This document shows positions 8,641-16,021 of a DNA stretch of 28,498 nucleotides, piece by piece (the first letter of the stretch is position 1; each line of letters begins with the position of its first letter). The notes under the pieces are model-generated. The model had not been told where the DNA came from and did not search any database. It saw only the letters and a list, made by a program, of their open reading frames with translations. The translations under genes and the position numbers were made by a program. This stretch comes from a virus. The stretch covers positions 1 through 28,498 of the IMG/VR virus record IMGVR_UViG_3300050011_000100. One strand, 5' to 3'.

Positions 8641-9615
8641 GTGCCGCTCCCTCCGCTGCCGTGCCTGCACTGCCCCCCTGACGGGTCGCCGTGCTCGAAC
8701 TGCGACGACGACGGAGACAGTACCCCGCCGCCGGTAGCCGAGGCCGCCCCCGCGATCGACCTGGGCAACCTGCAAGGCATCTGGGCGGACGTCTTCGGCC
8801 GGCAGGACGCCCTCTACGCCAAGCACGAGCGGAAAGCCCGCGCCGCATGGCGGAAGACCACAGCCGGGCTCGACCTCGCCGCCCTCGTGACCGCGTTCCG
8901 CCGCCACGCCCTCATGAACGACGACGGGCCCGCCGCAGGAACCGACTCCGACTCGCCCGAAGCCGCTAAGCGGCACAAGGCCGAGATCCTCGCCCTTGCC
9001 CGGTCGATGGCTTCCGGGTTCCTCGCCGGCGTCAACGACCAGCCTGATTACAGTCTCCTGCTCGCCGTGCTCACCGCCGCGCTCACCGCCGCGGCGGGCG
9101 AGGGAACCGCTGCGGCGCTCGCCGTGTCCGCCGCAGAAGCGGGCTACCTGGCGTTCGCCTGGGAGAAAGCCGCCCGCGACGGCAGGACCGCCCCCGACCC
9201 GGGAACGGTTAACGGGTGGCTCGCGAAGATCCTCGCCGGGGCTGTCACCGACCTCGCCCGGACACTGGCCGCCGGGGCGATCGCGGGCTTGTCCGCTGAA
9301 GCGATACTCAAGGCTGCGTCGAAGGTTCTCGCCGCAGGCCGGTCGGTGGCCGTGTTCGCGAACTATGCCATGACGGCGGCGGTCAGTGCGGCTGCCGCCG
9401 CTGCTTACGCGGCGCTCGGCGGCATTGAGCTGCTGGATTTTGTCACGGCGGGCGATGGCAGGGTTTGTACCGTTTGCGGCGCTTGCGAGGACAACAGCCC
9501 GTACAGCATCGCGGACTACCCCGGAAGTCAGCATTCGAGATGCCGCTGCCAGCCGGTCCCTTCCGCAGGCATGACGCTCCCCTTCGGCGCATTCGCCGCC
9601 TACCTCCTGTCCTGA
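8641..9615 (+). CDS. MuF-like minor head protein
   Basis: MuF/SPP1 gp7-type proteins are minor capsid components that interact with the portal and enter the head. The C-terminal part has the family signature: DFVTAGDGRVCTVCGACEDN, then PYS..DYPG..H..CRC (Cys276, 279, 282, His298, Cys301, 303), a metal-binding fold. The N-terminus has an extra Cys-rich stretch (CLHCPPDGSPCSNC). Residues about 100-260 are Ala-rich helices, unusually hydrophobic between 130 and 165 and 235 and 262. The start is a GTG at 8641 with ACGGAGG 6 bases upstream. Position after portal and before protease/scaffold fits. Confidence 0.85.
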   Translation: MPLPPLPCLHCPPDGSPCSNCDDDGDSTPPPVAEAAPAIDLGNLQGIWADVFGRQDALYAKHERKARAAWRKTTAGLDLAALVTAFRRHALMNDDGPAAGTDSDSPEAAKRHKAEILALARSMASGFLAGVNDQPDYSLLLAVLTAALTAAAGEGTAAALAVSAAEAGYLAFAWEKAARDGRTAPDPGTVNGWLAKILAGAVTDLARTLAAGAIAGLSAEAILKAASKVLAAGRSVAVFANYAMTAAVSAAAAAAYAALGGIELLDFVTAGDGRVCTVCGACEDNSPYSIADYPGSQHSRCRCQPVPSAGMTLPFGAFAAYLLS

Positions 9616-10114: not shown

Positions 10115-10453
10115 ATGCCGCAGCGTTCACCCGTCCTTTGGCACGCGAACTTCGACGACCACGGCAACTCCACCGTCGCCGAGGCGACCGCCGCGATCGC
10201 CGGCAACGCAGCGTCCACCACCGTCGTCAAGGCGGCCGGGGGCCGCCTGATGATCGTCGTGGTCACCGCCGCCGGCACCTCGACGGCCACCACCATCTAC
10301 GACAGTGCCAGTACCGGCACCGGCACCATCCTGGCGGTCATCCCCGCGACGACCGCTGTCGGCACGCAGCTCACCATCAACCTCCCCGCCGCGGTCGGCA
10401 TCACGGTCGTTCAGGGCGCGAGCAGCGTGGGCCTCACCATCGGGTACAACTAG
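10115..10453 (+). CDS. Small beta-rich putative virion protein
   Basis: This 112-residue, Thr/Ala/Val-rich protein has alternating strands (RLMIVVVTAAGTSTATTIYD, TILAVIPA, QLTINLPAAVGITVVQG, VGLTIGYN), as seen in trimeric phage surface proteins. The start ATG has GGAAAGGGG upstream. Its TAG stop overlaps the TAG of the convergent nuclease gene in the tetranucleotide CTAG (10450-10453). The role as decoration or stabilising protein is inferred from composition and place. Confidence 0.6.
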   Translation: MPQRSPVLWHANFDDHGNSTVAEATAAIAGNAASTTVVKAAGGRLMIVVVTAAGTSTATTIYDSASTGTGTILAVIPATTAVGTQLTINLPAAVGITVVQGASSVGLTIGYN

Positions 10454-11688
10454 GCCGCTTTCACGCCGCCGACTCCGGGCCAGTTGTCGGCGATGTCAAG
10501 GATCACCGGCAACGCGGCGATGTCGTAATACTCGCGACCCCAGACGGGCGAGAGTCCGCCATCCCGCAAGCCGGATTGAACGACCCTCTCAAGGGTGGCC
10601 GCATCCGGAAGGCCGGTCATCGTCCTGATGATCCGGGCGTACCCGCGCCTCTTGTGCTCCGCGAGTCGCTGCCTCGGATCGTTTGTGGTGATGCCGAACT
10701 TCACCCGGTTGGCATCGTCGTTCGCCACGACGTAGAAGATGTCCCATTCGCTGTGTGTGCAGTACCGGCAGATTCCCTGCCCCCCGCCCACGGGTCCGGG
10801 GCGGGGAATGCACAGGTGGCCGGCCTTGCAGATGACGCGGTGCGGAACATCACTGCCAAGCCACCGGGGTTCGATGACGAGCCCCCCAAGCGCGGAGACG
10901 CGATCTTTGAACGCCTGCCACACCTGTTCGGGTCCGCGCCCGGCGCAGACCGCGCACGGGCTGCCGCCTCGCGTGACCGTGATCGGATGGGCCATTGTGG
11001 TGTGGCCGTTGGCGCAGATGATCCGGTGCAACTTCCGGGCTCCGAGCCATGCGGGTTCGACCACTCGGCCTCCGAGCGCGGCGATGCCCTCGCAGAATGC
11101 CTGCTCAGTTACGGCAGGATCCTTGCCTGCACAGGTCAGGCAGACGCCGTGCCCCTTGTTGACGTCGCTCGGACGCGGGCGGCACTGGTGACCGTTCGCG
11201 CAGATGACACGGTGCGGAATCTTTGCGCCGAGCCATGATGGTTCAGTGACAAAGCCGGCGACTTCGGCGATCCGCTCGCGGAACGTCCGCTCTGCTGTGG
11301 AGGTGTCGTTTCCGGCGCAGGTGCGGCAGATGCCGCCTCGCGACTGGACGTCATTCGGTCGCGGAGATGACTCGTGACCGTCCTTGCAGATGATCCGGTG
11401 CGGAGTCTGACATCCAAGCCATCCGCCTTCGACGACGACCCCGCCAGCCTCGGTGACCCGCTGCTGGAATGCCAGCCATGCGGTCTTCGGGTCCTTGCCC
11501 GCGCACGCCCGACAGAGACCGCCGCCGCGCCTTAGCCGGGCGGGCATCGGCGTCACTTCGTGTCCCACCTCGCACGTGACGCGGTGCGGCGTGTTGACCC
11601 CGAGCCACTCCGGCTCGATCACTTGACCGCCAAGCTCGGCTACCCGATCGCGGAACTCCTGCCACGCCACCGCCGGGGAGCGCTTCAT
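10450..11688 (-). CDS. GIY-YIG-type nuclease with five tandem zinc modules (putative homing endonuclease)
   Basis: This 412-residue protein has residues 8-317 made of five consecutive 62-residue repeats. Each has a W/F helix start, GG-x-V-x-E-x2-WLG, then C-x3-GH ... GG-x-C-x2-C (zinc ligands at repeat positions 32, 36, 52, 55). The C-terminal domain (318-412) fits the GIY-YIG superfamily, T5orf172/MUG113-like branch: FYVV (318-321), VKFGIT (329-334), the R-rich helix PRQRLAEH, Glu367 (TLERVV) and Glu386 (GREYYD). The modules probably read DNA and the last domain cuts. The repeats resemble in logic the DUF723-type zinc modules fused to phage nucleases. It lies antisense between virion genes, coupled by ATGA to a small upstream partner. 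The zinc array and GIY-YIG fold are seen; homing is inferred. Confidence 0.85.
   Translation of the reverse strand: MKRSPAVAWQEFRDRVAELGGQVIEPEWLGVNTPHRVTCEVGHEVTPMPARLRRGGGLCRACAGKDPKTAWLAFQQRVTEAGGVVVEGGWLGCQTPHRIICKDGHESSPRPNDVQSRGGICRTCAGNDTSTAERTFRERIAEVAGFVTEPSWLGAKIPHRVICANGHQCRPRPSDVNKGHGVCLTCAGKDPAVTEQAFCEGIAALGGRVVEPAWLGARKLHRIICANGHTTMAHPITVTRGGSPCAVCAGRGPEQVWQAFKDRVSALGGLVIEPRWLGSDVPHRVICKAGHLCIPRPGPVGGGQGICRYCTHSEWDIFYVVANDDANRVKFGITTNDPRQRLAEHKRRGYARIIRTMTGLPDAATLERVVQSGLRDGGLSPVWGREYYDIAALPVILDIADNWPGVGGVKAA
10738..11667 (-). repeat. Five tandem 186-bp coding repeats (zinc modules)
   Basis: The five units encode exactly 62 residues each without spacers. Conserved positions are the WLG, PHR-[IV]-x-C, GH, GG-x-C-x2-CAG and D-P linker residues; the other positions vary strongly. 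Nucleotide identity is clearly lower than protein pattern identity, so the duplication is not recent. Confidence 0.9.
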
Positions 11689-11909
11689 CGCGGCGCGGTC
11701 AGGTAGCGCTCGACCTCGTCCATGTCAGCCAAGAAATAGTGCCGCCCGGGTGCCGGTGTCGCCGCTGGCGATCCACCGGCTGCCTCCATGCGGTACCGGC
11801 CGTAGTCCAAGCCGCGCGTGTCTCGCTGCGGCGATTTGACTAGCCGGAGTCCGCGCCGAGCGGCCATGCGGCGGAGGCGATTCTCGCGAACCTTCTCGTC
11901 CTGTTCCAT
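11685..11909 (-). CDS. Small basic actinobacterial protein, partner of the zinc-array nuclease
   Basis: This 74-residue protein has the pattern ENRLRRMAARRGLRLVKSPQ, then DYGRYRM...YFLADMDEVERYL. It is known to me as a widespread short family in actinobacterial chromosomes and mobile elements, of unknown function and often with a basic N-terminal helix. It overlaps the nuclease start by 4 bases, so the two are translated together. A likely leaderless promoter (TATGAT 7 bases before the ATG) drives both. It may help the nuclease bind DNA or regulate the cassette; that is inference from linkage only. Confidence 0.8.
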   Translation of the reverse strand: MEQDEKVRENRLRRMAARRGLRLVKSPQRDTRGLDYGRYRMEAAGGSPAATPAPGRHYFLADMDEVERYLTAPR

Positions 11910-11964: not shown

Positions 11965-13749
11965 GTGGCTAAGACGATTGCCACCATCACGGGCACCGCC
12001 CTCCGGCCGGGCGTGTCCGCTAACAAGCGCTGGTACAAGCCGGAGCATGTCGCCGAAGCGGTCCGCAAGGCGCAGGAGCGGATCAAATCCGGCGACAAGC
12101 CGATGGTCATGCTGACCTTCCACGGGGCCGATGACAACTCCCAGTTGATCGCAGCCTCGATGTCGGGTGCGTCCCTTAACGAGCGCGGCGAGATGGACTT
12201 CACGGCCGGGATCGTGGATACCCCGGCCGGGTGGGACATCGCCTGGCTCGCCGACACGTCGGACGGCAAGCCGGCGCACCTGAAGAACGTCTCGATTCGC
12301 GGCTACTGGCTCGGCAAGGTCCGCAAGGAGCGCGGCCCTTCAGGCGAGATGGTGGAGACCGCTGACGGGGTCGTTCTCGACGGCGTTGATTTCACCCGTT
12401 CGCCCGGAGTGGCCGGTGCGGAGATCAAGACCTTCGCCTGGGCGAATGGCGGCGCGACCGAGACGACTGAACGAGTCGCGATCACTGAGAGCGCGGAGGC
12501 GAGCGTGACCATCACCGAGGAAACGGCACCCGGGCAGCAAGGCGTGCCCGAGGGGCTGGCGGAGATGCTCGCGCCGCCGCCTCACGTCCTTGAAAACGGG
12601 ACATGCGCCACCTGCGCGCAGGTCGCGGAAGGCGGCAACGCCCCCGGCAACGGCGACAAGCCGTTCGGGGATGTCCCCTATGCCGACCCCGGCTACCAGG
12701 CGGACAAGAAGAAGCGGTACCCCGTCGACACGAAGGCCCACGTCAAGGCCGCGCTCGGCTACCTAGCACAGAAGTCCAATGCGGTCAAGTACTCGTCGAC
12801 TCAGCTCAAGCGGGTCAAGAGCAGGGTCATGGCGGCGGCGAAGAAGTTCGGCGTCACCGTGTCCGCCGAGTCCGCCGGGTGGACGTTCGACGCCCCGGTG
12901 CAGGTCGGCGAGGCACTGGCCGAGCACATGGGCATCCCGTCGTGCGCGGGCTCGTGGTCCGTCCGCGCATCTAACGGCCCGGTCGACATCTGCCTGTCCT
13001 CGTACAGCGTGGACCCCGAAGACCTCGACGTCATCCTCCGTGCCGCCGCCGACGCCGCGTGCAAGGCACTGGCGGCGCTGGACCCGGACATGGACGGCGA
13101 CGTCGACGTGCCCGGCGTCGGCGCCAACAGCGACCCGAACGGCGACGCGGGCGAGTCCGCGGCCGAGGGCGAGCAGGAAACAGAAGACCAGGCAGCCGGT
13201 CCGGCCGCCGCGACAACGGAAACGGAGGGTTCCATGACGGAGCCTGCCACCCCGGCGGCGGAAACCGCGCCGGGAATCGACCCCAAGGCTCTCGCTGAGG
13301 CGGTCGCCGGCATTCTCGGCGCCCGCGATGAGGCGAAGGCCACCGCGAAGCAGGAGAAGCGGGCCCGCAGGGCAGCCGAGGAGGCCGCCGCCGCGAAGAC
13401 CGCGACCGAGACCGCCAAGCCCGCCCCCGCCACGGTCGCCGAGACCGACGACCAGCGCCGCGCCCGCCTTCAGGCGGTCGTCGACGCCCAGTTCGCCACG
13501 GCGGCCACAGCCGAGGGCCTGTCCGCCGTCAAGACCGACGAGCAGCTCGTCGCCGAGATGCTCGAGGAGCGCATGATCCCGCTCCGGCAGGCACGCGCCG
13601 AGGGCGGCGGGGTTCAGCGCAAGGGCATCGCCCAGCTCGAGGCCCTCGCCGACGCCCCCGGTGTCAACGCGAAGCTCTCGACGGCGAGCAATGAGGAACT
13701 GGCCGCGCTGGCCGGTGCCGCGTTCGGCTCCCACGCCGGCCGCCGCTAA
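11965..13749 (+). CDS. Capsid maturation protease fused to scaffolding protein
   Basis: This 594-residue protein starts at GTG 11965 behind GGGGAGGT; earlier in-frame starts would overlap the antisense gene and give unnatural residues. Residues about 5-160 resemble prohead proteases, with candidate His53 (MLTFHGADD) and Ser110 (HLKNVSIRGYW) and the closing VDFTRSPGV. Residues about 239-297 (ADPGYQADKKKRYPVDTKAH then VKAALGYL...) fit DUF6582. Residues 325-400 include a Cys-containing region and the Asp-rich DPDMDGDVDV. The last 170 residues are Ala/Glu/Lys-rich helices with a basic C-terminus, typical of scaffolds. An internal ATG (13234) with its own ribosome site may make scaffold separately. 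Position ahead of the capsid gene is standard. Confidence 0.85.
   Translation: MAKTIATITGTALRPGVSANKRWYKPEHVAEAVRKAQERIKSGDKPMVMLTFHGADDNSQLIAASMSGASLNERGEMDFTAGIVDTPAGWDIAWLADTSDGKPAHLKNVSIRGYWLGKVRKERGPSGEMVETADGVVLDGVDFTRSPGVAGAEIKTFAWANGGATETTERVAITESAEASVTITEETAPGQQGVPEGLAEMLAPPPHVLENGTCATCAQVAEGGNAPGNGDKPFGDVPYADPGYQADKKKRYPVDTKAHVKAALGYLAQKSNAVKYSSTQLKRVKSRVMAAAKKFGVTVSAESAGWTFDAPVQVGEALAEHMGIPSCAGSWSVRASNGPVDICLSSYSVDPEDLDVILRAAADAACKALAALDPDMDGDVDVPGVGANSDPNGDAGESAAEGEQETEDQAAGPAAATTETEGSMTEPATPAAETAPGIDPKALAEAVAGILGARDEAKATAKQEKRARRAAEEAAAAKTATETAKPAPATVAETDDQRRARLQAVVDAQFATAATAEGLSAVKTDEQLVAEMLEERMIPLRQARAEGGGVQRKGIAQLEALADAPGVNAKLSTASNEELAALAGAAFGSHAGRR
13234..13749 (+). CDS. Scaffolding protein from an internal in-frame start
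   Basis: Inside the protease gene an ATG at 13234 is preceded by GGAGGG (13224-13229) with a 4-base spacer, and it is in frame. The 171-residue product starts MTEPATPAAETAPG and covers exactly the helical scaffold part, ending in the basic ...AAFGSHAGRR. This is the arrangement of lambda C/Nu3, where protease and scaffold share a C-terminus. The motif and domain border are seen; use of the start is inferred. Confidence 0.55.
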   Translation: MTEPATPAAETAPGIDPKALAEAVAGILGARDEAKATAKQEKRARRAAEEAAAAKTATETAKPAPATVAETDDQRRARLQAVVDAQFATAATAEGLSAVKTDEQLVAEMLEERMIPLRQARAEGGGVQRKGIAQLEALADAPGVNAKLSTASNEELAALAGAAFGSHAGRR

Positions 13750-13895: not shown

Positions 13896-15272
13896 ATGTC
13901 CGAGATCCGCGAGGCGCTTACCGCCGCGGGCGCCAGTCCGTTCGTCCCGAAGCTCATCGATCCGACGCTGGTGGAGTACCAGCGCCGGTTCGCGCCGTGG
14001 TGCCGGGCGATCCCGACGAAGAAGACGAACAGCACCCAGTACTTCTTCAACACCCGCACGGTGGTCGTGTCCGGCGGGGCGGTGCCCGACGGCGGCGCCC
14101 GCACCGTCTCCACCAGCACCTACCAGCAGGGCAGCTTCACGATGGCCCACATCCAGGCCGTCGGCAGTGTCACCGGGTACGCGCAGGCGGTCACCACCGA
14201 CCTCGTTGACCTGCGTGCCACTGAAATCAACGGGGCCATCAAGGGCTACTACTGGGACATCGAGACGTTCTGCGGGTGGGGCAACGCGGCGTCGACCCTG
14301 AACCAGGCTCAGCCCCAGTTCGACGGGCTCGACACCCAGATCCAGCAGTTCACGGGCGGGACGCAGAACACGATCGACTACGCGGGCCGGTCGCTGTCCC
14401 TGTCGACGCTCGACGAGCTCGCGGTGCTGGTGTCGGGGAACGCCGCCGAGGTGGTGTACAACCCGGGGTGGATGTACGTCATGTCGGTCAGCTCAGAGGC
14501 GCGGATCGCGCAGCTCCTGACCGCGCAGCAGCGGTACAACAGCGTGGAGATCGCCGCCGGCCTGGTCGTGGCCACGTACAAGAACATCCCGCTCGTGCCG
14601 TCGTCGTTCCTCAGCACGCTGGGGTACCAGATGGGCACGGTCACGGCGGCGACCGCCACGACCGGGGGCACCCTCCCGGCGTCGACCACCTACCGGTACG
14701 TGGTGTCGGCCGTCATCGCCCGGCAGGGCGAGATCCTGCCCTCGGTGGAGGTGTCGCAGGCCACCGGCGGCAGCACGTCGACCAACACGGTCACCCTGTC
14801 GTTCTCCCAGCCGGGCGGGCAGGACGGGCTCGGCCCGCAGCTGTACAAGGTGTACCGGTCGCCGGCGAACGGGGTCCCCGGGTCCGAAACCTTCTTGGGC
14901 TACGTCGACTCCACGGTCGGGCTCGCGTCCGACCAGGTGACGCCGATCCTCGCCACCCAGATCGTCGACACCGGCACTGCGCTCGTCCCGCAGGCCAGCG
15001 GCCCCATCGTTCCGAGCATCCTCCCGGTGCAGTACTACAGCACCAACGCGGCCATGCTGCCGCCGGGAGCCGGTCAGGAGAACATCTACCTGATGTCCCG
15101 CGACCCGGGCAACATCGTCCGGCCGTTCGTTCGCGAGGCGCTTCCGCTAGATGTGTTTCCAACCACTTCGTCCCCGGATAGCATGCCATTCGCCATAATG
15201 GGGGATACGTGCTTGGCGGTGCGAACGCCCAAGTTTGTCGGACGTGCGTACCGTGTGGCGGTAGCGGTCTAG
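13896..15272 (+). CDS. Major capsid protein with an inserted Ig/FN3-like domain
   Basis: This is the shell protein, 458 residues, called by place (after protease-scaffold, before connector), strong ribosome site (AGAGGAG) and pattern. The N-arm is helical (MSEIREALTAAGASPFVPKL). Regions like YFFNTRT, STYQQGSFTMAHIQAVGSVT and DLRATEINGAIKGYYWDIET read as HK97-fold E-loop and spine. Residues about 246-345 are Thr/Ser-rich and beta-like (TYRYVVSAVIARQGEILPSV, QLYKVYRSPANG), consistent with an FN3/Ig-like surface insertion. The last 44 codons (from 15138) switch to A/T-ending codons (16 of 44 against 4 of 44 in the preceding block, hand count) although the protein stays sensible. This suggests replacement of the 3' end next to the HNH gene. 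Confidence 0.85.
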   Translation: MSEIREALTAAGASPFVPKLIDPTLVEYQRRFAPWCRAIPTKKTNSTQYFFNTRTVVVSGGAVPDGGARTVSTSTYQQGSFTMAHIQAVGSVTGYAQAVTTDLVDLRATEINGAIKGYYWDIETFCGWGNAASTLNQAQPQFDGLDTQIQQFTGGTQNTIDYAGRSLSLSTLDELAVLVSGNAAEVVYNPGWMYVMSVSSEARIAQLLTAQQRYNSVEIAAGLVVATYKNIPLVPSSFLSTLGYQMGTVTAATATTGGTLPASTTYRYVVSAVIARQGEILPSVEVSQATGGSTSTNTVTLSFSQPGGQDGLGPQLYKVYRSPANGVPGSETFLGYVDSTVGLASDQVTPILATQIVDTGTALVPQASGPIVPSILPVQYYSTNAAMLPPGAGQENIYLMSRDPGNIVRPFVREALPLDVFPTTSSPDSMPFAIMGDTCLAVRTPKFVGRAYRVAVAV

Positions 15273-15322
15273 TTGTCCGTTTCAGTCTGGCGGGTCAGCC
15301 GGAGACTTCACGCACTGATCCG

Positions 15323-15328
15323 CTAGAC
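15323..15328 (+). promoter_or_regulatory. Possible -10 element (TAGACT) for the HNH gene
   Basis: TAGACT is a typical actinobacterial -10 hexamer. It lies just after the capsid stop and 13 bases ahead of the hairpin at 15341. No good -35 is found 17-18 bases upstream, so the call is weak. Confidence 0.35.
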
Positions 15329-15340
15329 TGTTCGCATAAG

Positions 15341-15372
15341 GTTCCGGAGGGTGCTAGAACACCCCCCGGAAC
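15341..15372 (+). terminator. Hairpin between capsid and HNH genes (terminator or leader structure)
   Basis: A 13-base stem with one A/C mismatch pairs GTTCCGGAGGGTG (15341-15353) with CACCCCCCGGAAC (15360-15372); the loop is CTAGAA. No T-tract follows, so it may be a transcription-processing or leader hairpin rather than a strong terminator. It is part of the 131-base gap after the capsid gene. Confidence 0.5.
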
Positions 15373-15403
15373 GGACATCATCGATCTGATTGGGCAGACC
15401 GAC

Positions 15404-16021
15404 ATGGACGATCGTACGCTCGCGCTGTTCATGAGCAAAGTGGAGATACAGCCGGACGGCTGCTGGCGCTGGACCGGCCACATCAAGAAAGACGGCTACG
15501 GAGCCTTCTACATCGACGGCGCGAACCGCCTCGCGCACCGCGTGGCTTACGAGCACTTCATCGGCCCGATCCCGGACGGCCTTGAACTGGACCACCTGTG
15601 TCACACCAGGAGTTCGGGATGTGCTGGCGGCAAGACCGACTTGCATCGGCGGTGCGTCAACGCCATCCGTGATCTTGAGCCGGTAACGGGCATAGAGAAC
15701 ATCCGCCGGGGTGCGGCGCTCATCACCCACTGCCCGCAGAATCACGAGTACACGCCCGAGAACACGTACTGGGCGCCGAACGGCGGCCGGGAATGCCGCG
15801 AGTGCCGCGCGGAAACCGCACGCCGTTGGGTGGCGGAGCATAACCCGGGCGTCCTTCACGGCACCGAGACCCACTGCCCGCAGAACCACCCGTATTCGGG
15901 CGACAACCTGTACATCATCCCGTCAACGGGCGGGCGGGTGTGCCGGATTTGCAAGCGCGAGCAGGGCCGCGAGTGGATGCGTGCCAAGCGCGCTGCGGCC
16001 AAGGCGGCTCGAATCGCATGA
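15404..16021 (+). CDS. HNH endonuclease with two C-terminal zinc modules (putative homing endonuclease)
   Basis: This is a 205-residue free-standing HNH protein. Residues 17-104 follow the phage HNH_3 pattern: DGCWRWTG, AHRVAYEHFIGPIPDGLELD then H64 (LDHLC), Cys73/Cys84 and CVN (Asn86) before LEPVTGIENIRRG. Where relatives have a His before LEPV, this one has Asp90 (RDLEPV), so the third catalytic/metal position is altered. Two zinc modules follow: HCPQNH...GGRECREC (109-134) and HCPQNH...GGRVCRIC (157-183). The end is basic. The ATG at 15404 is chosen by homology of the start; Met10 at 15431 is an alternative, and no good ribosome site is visible. It lies right after the capsid gene, a classic homing site. 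Confidence 0.88.
   Translation: MDDRTLALFMSKVEIQPDGCWRWTGHIKKDGYGAFYIDGANRLAHRVAYEHFIGPIPDGLELDHLCHTRSSGCAGGKTDLHRRCVNAIRDLEPVTGIENIRRGAALITHCPQNHEYTPENTYWAPNGGRECRECRAETARRWVAEHNPGVLHGTETHCPQNHPYSGDNLYIIPSTGGRVCRICKREQGREWMRAKRAAAKAARIA

What the first reader, a model, noticed from the sequence alone, without database searches (positions are those of the whole stretch)
10450..11909. Antisense GIY-YIG nuclease with five exact 62-residue zinc modules: a modular DNA-reading array?
Five consecutive units of identical length, each with the same zinc ligands (C-x3-GH and C-x2-C) but variable other positions, precede one GIY-YIG domain. This looks like a tandem DNA-recognition array coupled to one cutter, comparable in logic to zinc-finger or TALE-type readers. 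Array length may set site length. A small coupled partner protein and its own leaderless promoter complete a two-gene cassette inserted between virion genes. I do not know this combination as a described system.
Basis: partly seen in the sequence, partly recalled or inferred. Interest (0 to 1): 0.85.

Follow-up and report, generated by a model that had tools for sequence, protein, structure and literature searches.

The report
Phage homing nuclease with zinc-module array
This is a selfish DNA-cutting gene (a homing endonuclease gene) sitting between the capsid genes of a phage related to Streptomyces phages; its five zinc-binding modules probably hold it on its target, and this architecture has already been described in other phages.

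Summary
ORF 10450-11688(-) holds five units of exactly 62 residues (residues 5-314) followed by one GIY-YIG/T5orf172-type nuclease domain with its catalytic residues intact. The best explanation is a free-standing homing endonuclease. Related phages have the same virion gene order with no insert at this junction (L035, L039, L043, L044, L045, L048). Nuclease and phage backbone disagree in relatedness in both directions: against L041 the nuclease is 45% identical but the capsid protein 85%; against L005, 65% and 50%. Nuclease-domain clades follow insertion sites. Unit number runs from 2 to 7 in relatives, and the zinc ligands are invariant in 115 of 115 units. The units relate to the CapR/DUF4379 treble-clef domains of T5orf172 homing endonucleases, an architecture published in 2023 (PMC10448857), so the combination is not new. 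The 74-aa partner is absent from all but one nearly identical group of relatives, truncated in L005, and found without a nuclease beside an integrase; it is a passenger, not part of a two-gene system. That array length sets site length is untested. In L005 the nuclease interrupts the prohead-protease gene and is followed by a second, diverged protease start, a phage mirror of fungal mitochondrial gene hybrids.

The parts
10450..11688 (-). homing endonuclease gene, 412 aa: five CapR-like zinc modules plus a GIY-YIG/T5orf172 nuclease domain
11491..11676 (-). zinc unit 1 (residues 5-66)
11305..11490 (-). zinc unit 2 (residues 67-128)
11119..11304 (-). zinc unit 3 (residues 129-190)
10933..11118 (-). 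zinc unit 4 (residues 191-252)
10747..10932 (-). zinc unit 5 (residues 253-314)
10450..10746 (-). GIY-YIG/T5orf172 nuclease domain (residues 315-412) and stop; Y319, K330, F331, G332, T334, R341, H345 and E367 invariant across 23 aligned members
11685..11909 (-). 74-aa accessory ORF, 4-nt overlap with the nuclease gene; homologue at the same place in L041, remnant in L005, homologue without a nuclease in L131
11917..11922 (-). candidate leaderless -10 element TATGAT, 7 nt before the ATG of the 74-aa ORF
   Evidence: sequence; TANNNT 5-6 nt before a start also in 7 of 23 relatives
10115..10453 (+). left flank: 112-aa virion-region gene; its stop TAG overlaps the nuclease stop within CTAG
11965..13749 (+). 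right flank: prohead-protease-like gene; its conserved 5' end (IATIxGTxLxPGVSxNxRxY) is the likely homing target region (inferred)

Best explanation
The gene is a free-standing homing endonuclease gene of the T5orf172/GIY-YIG class, carried in an actinobacteriophage-like genome. The five flexibly linked CapR-like treble-clef zinc units bind and position the protein along a long target at the 112-aa-gene/prohead-protease junction or the conserved 5' end of the protease gene in phages lacking the insert. The GIY-YIG domain cuts there, and repair from the carrier copies the gene into the rival genome. Sequence shows the anatomy, the intact catalytic residues, empty and occupied sites, and histories that point to horizontal movement. 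DNA binding by the units, cutting, the exact target and homing itself are inferred from the family.
For: Empty sites with the same gene order in six relatives. Discordant relatedness in both directions: window-L041 nuclease 45.5%, protease N-terminus 63%, capsid protein 85%; window-L005 nuclease 65%, protease 43%, capsid protein 50%. Nuclease domains of the three protease-site genes form a clade (support 97/83), and other clades sit at other shared junctions. In L005 the gene interrupts the protease gene at its N-terminus and is followed by a second, diverged protease start, a signature known from mobile endonuclease genes in fungal mitochondria. Catalytic residues are invariant in 23 aligned members. 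Profile and fold link to CapR/T5orf172 homing endonucleases. Published T5orf172 genes have the same architecture and lie near capsid and terminase genes.
Against: No cleavage or homing was shown. The closest empty-site phages are only about 80-85% identical in capsid protein, so no near-isogenic plus/minus pair exists. The window's own units score below Pfam's CapR and DUF4379 thresholds; the link runs through relatives. No PDB structure matches.
Confidence: 0.87

Rival explanations
1. A resident exclusion nuclease: the gene is kept because it cuts competing phages in mixed infection, with homing incidental or lost.
For: Homing endonucleases also give marker exclusion in T-even phages (established knowledge); intact catalytic residues and own promoter-like element.
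Against: No immunity or methylase partner; the 74-aa ORF is dispensable. Occupied/empty alleles and discordant histories fit homing.
Confidence: 0.07
2. A domesticated repressor like CapR: the zinc array controls the virion operon and the nuclease no longer cuts.
For: CapR of phage satellites is a related zinc-finger protein that represses ICP1 capsid expression (PMC10448857); this gene lies antisense just upstream of the protease and capsid genes.
Against: Nuclease motif fully kept across 23 aligned members; relatives sit at several unrelated junctions.
Confidence: 0.04
3. A strictly modular reader in which each 62-residue unit contacts a fixed DNA segment, so unit number sets site length and variable residues set specificity. 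This is a refinement of the best explanation, not exclusive of it.
For: Exact 62-residue period, unit number 2-7 in relatives, invariant zinc ligands with variable positions 23, 27-29, 42, 46-47, 49, 52; beads without fixed arrangement.
Against: No DNA-bound structure or target data; variability may be drift. Between window and L005 units the changed positions overlap only partly with the proposed set.
Confidence: 0.12
4. Part of a group I intron or intein rather than a free-standing gene.
For: L005 interrupts the protease gene; another phage of this group carries an intein in a head gene (L048).
Against: No Rfam intron match in the window, L005 or L041; in the window the gene lies wholly between two complete genes; in L005 the downstream copy has its own start.
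Confidence: 0.01

Closest known systems
T5orf172 (GIY-YIG) homing endonucleases with CapR/DUF723/DUF4379 zinc-finger repeats (PMC10448857)
   Same: Several treble-clef zinc domains with one GIY-YIG-class nuclease domain; repeat number varies; genes lie near capsid and terminase genes.
   Different: Strict 62-residue period in this Streptomyces-phage clade; CxxxH...CxxC ligands; window sequence below Pfam thresholds for CapR.
Streptomyces phage phiSAJS1 gp30 and Krischvirus FL04 WWP71658.1 (hypothetical proteins)
   Same: Same kind of units plus the same nuclease domain; gp30 is also antisense between tail genes.
   Different: 2 units (gp30) and 4 units (FL04); 37% and 25% identity.
I-TevI of phage T4
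   Same: GIY-YIG nuclease domain with flexibly linked DNA-binding parts.
   Different: Nuclease domain at the N-terminus, single zinc finger and helix-turn-helix, inside a group I intron (general knowledge).
Mobile endonuclease ORFs making gene hybrids in fungal mitochondria (Allomyces atp6; PMC3630166)
   Same: L005: insertion within a gene together with a diverged replacement of the interrupted end.
   Different: Replacement of the N-terminus in a phage gene, endonuclease antisense; the fungal cases replace the C-terminus.

Membership tests
T5orf172/GIY-YIG homing endonucleases with CapR-like arrays | GIY-YIG-class catalytic domain with conserved Tyr/Arg/Glu | tested here: met
   Y319, K330-G332, R341, E367 invariant in 23 aligned members; T5orf172 E=0.0034, 18.3 bits against a 20-bit cut-off; phrog_681
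T5orf172/GIY-YIG homing endonucleases with CapR-like arrays | Tandem CapR/DUF723/DUF4379 zinc domains | tested here: met
   Not met by direct Pfam scan of the window; met through relatives: CapR in 4 of 23 members, best 1.8e-17; CapR in FL04; profile-profile probability 95.5%; fold matches to CapR/treble-clef proteins
T5orf172/GIY-YIG homing endonucleases with CapR-like arrays | Inserted near essential phage genes, with empty alleles in relatives | tested here: met
T5orf172/GIY-YIG homing endonucleases with CapR-like arrays | Site-specific cleavage and homing | not testable with these tools
   Only indirect: discordant histories and site-linked clades
TALE or C2H2 zinc-finger readers | Homology to those modules | tested here: not met
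   No such Pfam match
TALE or C2H2 zinc-finger readers | One module reads a fixed number of bases | not testable with these tools
   No bound structure or target data
Group I intron-encoded endonuclease | Surrounding self-splicing intron | tested here: not met
   No Rfam match up to E=0.1 in the window, L005 or L041
Two-gene nuclease plus partner system | Partner gene conserved with the nuclease | tested here: not met
   Homologue beside the nuclease only in L041 and its near-identical contigs; remnant in L005; homologue beside an integrase without a nuclease in L131

The most novel reading that the evidence does not exclude
The 62-residue units form a truly modular, in-register DNA reader: each unit covers a fixed stretch of target, unit number (2 to 7) sets target length, and a small set of variable positions sets sequence preference, so that the clade is a natural series of nucleases of graded target length.
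Probability: 0.13. Interest if true: 0.75.

Novelty: new member of a known kind. Interest (0 to 1): 0.36.

Why it matters
The clade gives a clean series of nucleases with 2, 3, 4, 5, 6 and 7 near-equal zinc units on one nuclease domain, with known empty and occupied sites. That makes an open question directly testable: do the repeated zinc fingers of T5orf172 homing endonucleases read DNA in register, or only add affinity? L005 shows how such a gene can invade an essential gene and still leave a complete reading frame.

Tried and rejected
Single-sequence peptide scan of viral contigs with the window protein found nothing; the alignment-based scan did. DNA-level search of phage records found no relative. 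PDB sequence and fold searches gave nothing useful. The 74-aa ORF has no Pfam, PHROG or NCBIfam match; only weak plasmid matches, the one inspected lying at the start of a GNAT protein between Ku and DNA ligase D genes; none in three Streptomycetaceae genomes (without a positive control). No sigma-70 promoter match in the region. Rejected: restriction-modification (no methylase in the cassette), intron or intein for the window gene, chance periodicity.

Full report
What is there. The minus-strand ORF 10450-11688 encodes 412 residues: five units of exactly 62 residues (5-66, 67-128, 129-190, 191-252, 253-314), then a nuclease domain. Units are 40-52% identical to each other; self-identity at lag 62 is 45.6%, against a shuffled maximum of 15%. 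Cys35, His39, Pro45, Cys55 and Cys58 are invariant in 115 of 115 units collected from the window and its relatives. The nuclease domain scores just under Pfam's cut-off for T5orf172, and the whole protein matches phrog_681 'endonuclease' at 8.7e-29.

Relatives. A profile scan of viral contigs gave 28 loci and a genome scan gave 12, nearly all in Streptomyces, with one Kitasatospora and one Actinacidiphila. Unit number: 2 in phiSAJS1 gp30 and L027, L028, L029, L032; 3 in L024 and L124; 4 in most; 5 in the window, L005, L006, L010, L114 and L116; 6 in L011 and L117; 7 in L030/L122. Tyr319, Lys330-Gly332, Thr334, Arg341, His345 and Glu367 are invariant in the 23 aligned proteins. Pfam CapR is found in 4 of 23 members (best 1.8e-17) and in the T4-like FL04 relative; a profile-profile comparison of the units with the FL04 CapR domains gives 95.5% probability.

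Structure. AlphaFold2 gives mean pLDDT 90.5 but pTM 0.47: confident separate domains whose relative placement is not fixed. Foldseek against viral predictions returns CapR-homology, treble-clef and T5orf172 proteins and annotated homing endonucleases; the PDB has no match.

Mobility. The window gene lies between a 112-aa virion-region gene and a prohead-protease-like gene, both on the plus strand. Phages with the same gene order but no insert include L035, L039, L043, L044, L045 and L048, with gaps of roughly 30-90 bp in place of about 1.5 kb. L041 (and near-identical contigs L006, L007, L026) has the same gene at the same junction. Relatedness disagrees in both directions: window-L041 nuclease 45.5%, protease N-terminus 63%, capsid protein 85%; window-L005 65%, 43%, 50%. 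In a tree of nuclease domains the three protease-site genes form a clade (97/83), and genes near the terminase and portal of related phages, or at a third shared junction, fall in other clades, apart from L024. This is what site-linked homing with horizontal transfer predicts; inheritance by descent alone does not.

L005. Here the nuclease gene interrupts the protease gene: MAGRIATITGTMLTPGVSRNGRLYA, then the antisense nuclease, then a second start MANIIARFRGVCLVPGISRNGRLYER leading into the full protease. The two versions of the 5' end match at only 40 of 72 nt. This resembles hybrid genes made by mobile endonuclease ORFs in fungal mitochondria (PMC3630166), mirrored to the N-terminus. The order of events is inferred.

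The partner. The 74-aa ORF has a 53% identical homologue in L041, a truncated remnant in L005, none beside the other relatives' nucleases, and homologues in phage contigs without the nuclease, one beside an integrase. It is best read as a passenger. A TATGAT box lies 7 nt before its ATG, and TANNNT boxes 5-6 nt before a start occur in 7 of 23 relatives; expression from its own leaderless promoter is plausible, not shown.

Known or new. T5orf172 homing endonucleases with one or more CapR, DUF723 or DUF4379 zinc fingers, described as beads on a string and lying near capsid and terminase genes, were published in 2023 (PMC10448857). The window gene is a new member of that kind. What remains open is whether the units read DNA in register; the clade offers a graded series to test it.

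Noticed in passing
L048:2800-4000 (IMGVR 3300036820_000012): The head gene homologous to window 8641-9615 holds an intein-like insertion (CFPAGTKVATPDGDRPIESL ... AAGIRVHNC) whose sense frame is open throughout, while the opposite strand of the same stretch encodes a 340-aa Vsr/DUF559-type nuclease with cysteine-rich zinc motifs (L048:2865-3887 -). An endonuclease antisense inside an uninterrupted intein frame deserves its own look.
   Followed up: partly
window 15209-16021 (+): A second endonuclease, HNH type (phrog_826, E=1.5e-59), directly after the capsid gene; a 76% identical homologue in L034, but none between the capsid gene and the next gene in L035-L038, L040 or L041.
   Followed up: partly
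L005:4800-6300: Protease gene with a stub of its original 5' end, the antisense nuclease, and a diverged second start.
   Followed up: yes
L114 and L115 (Streptomyces acidicola contig NZ_VMNX01000001.1): The two 9.2-kb loci around the nuclease gene are identical although about 90 kb apart on one contig; recent duplication or assembly artefact not distinguished.
   Followed up: no
L126 (Sphingobium plasmid pSH1): A stretch like the 74-aa ORF forms the start of a GNAT-annotated protein between Ku and DNA ligase D genes.
   Followed up: no
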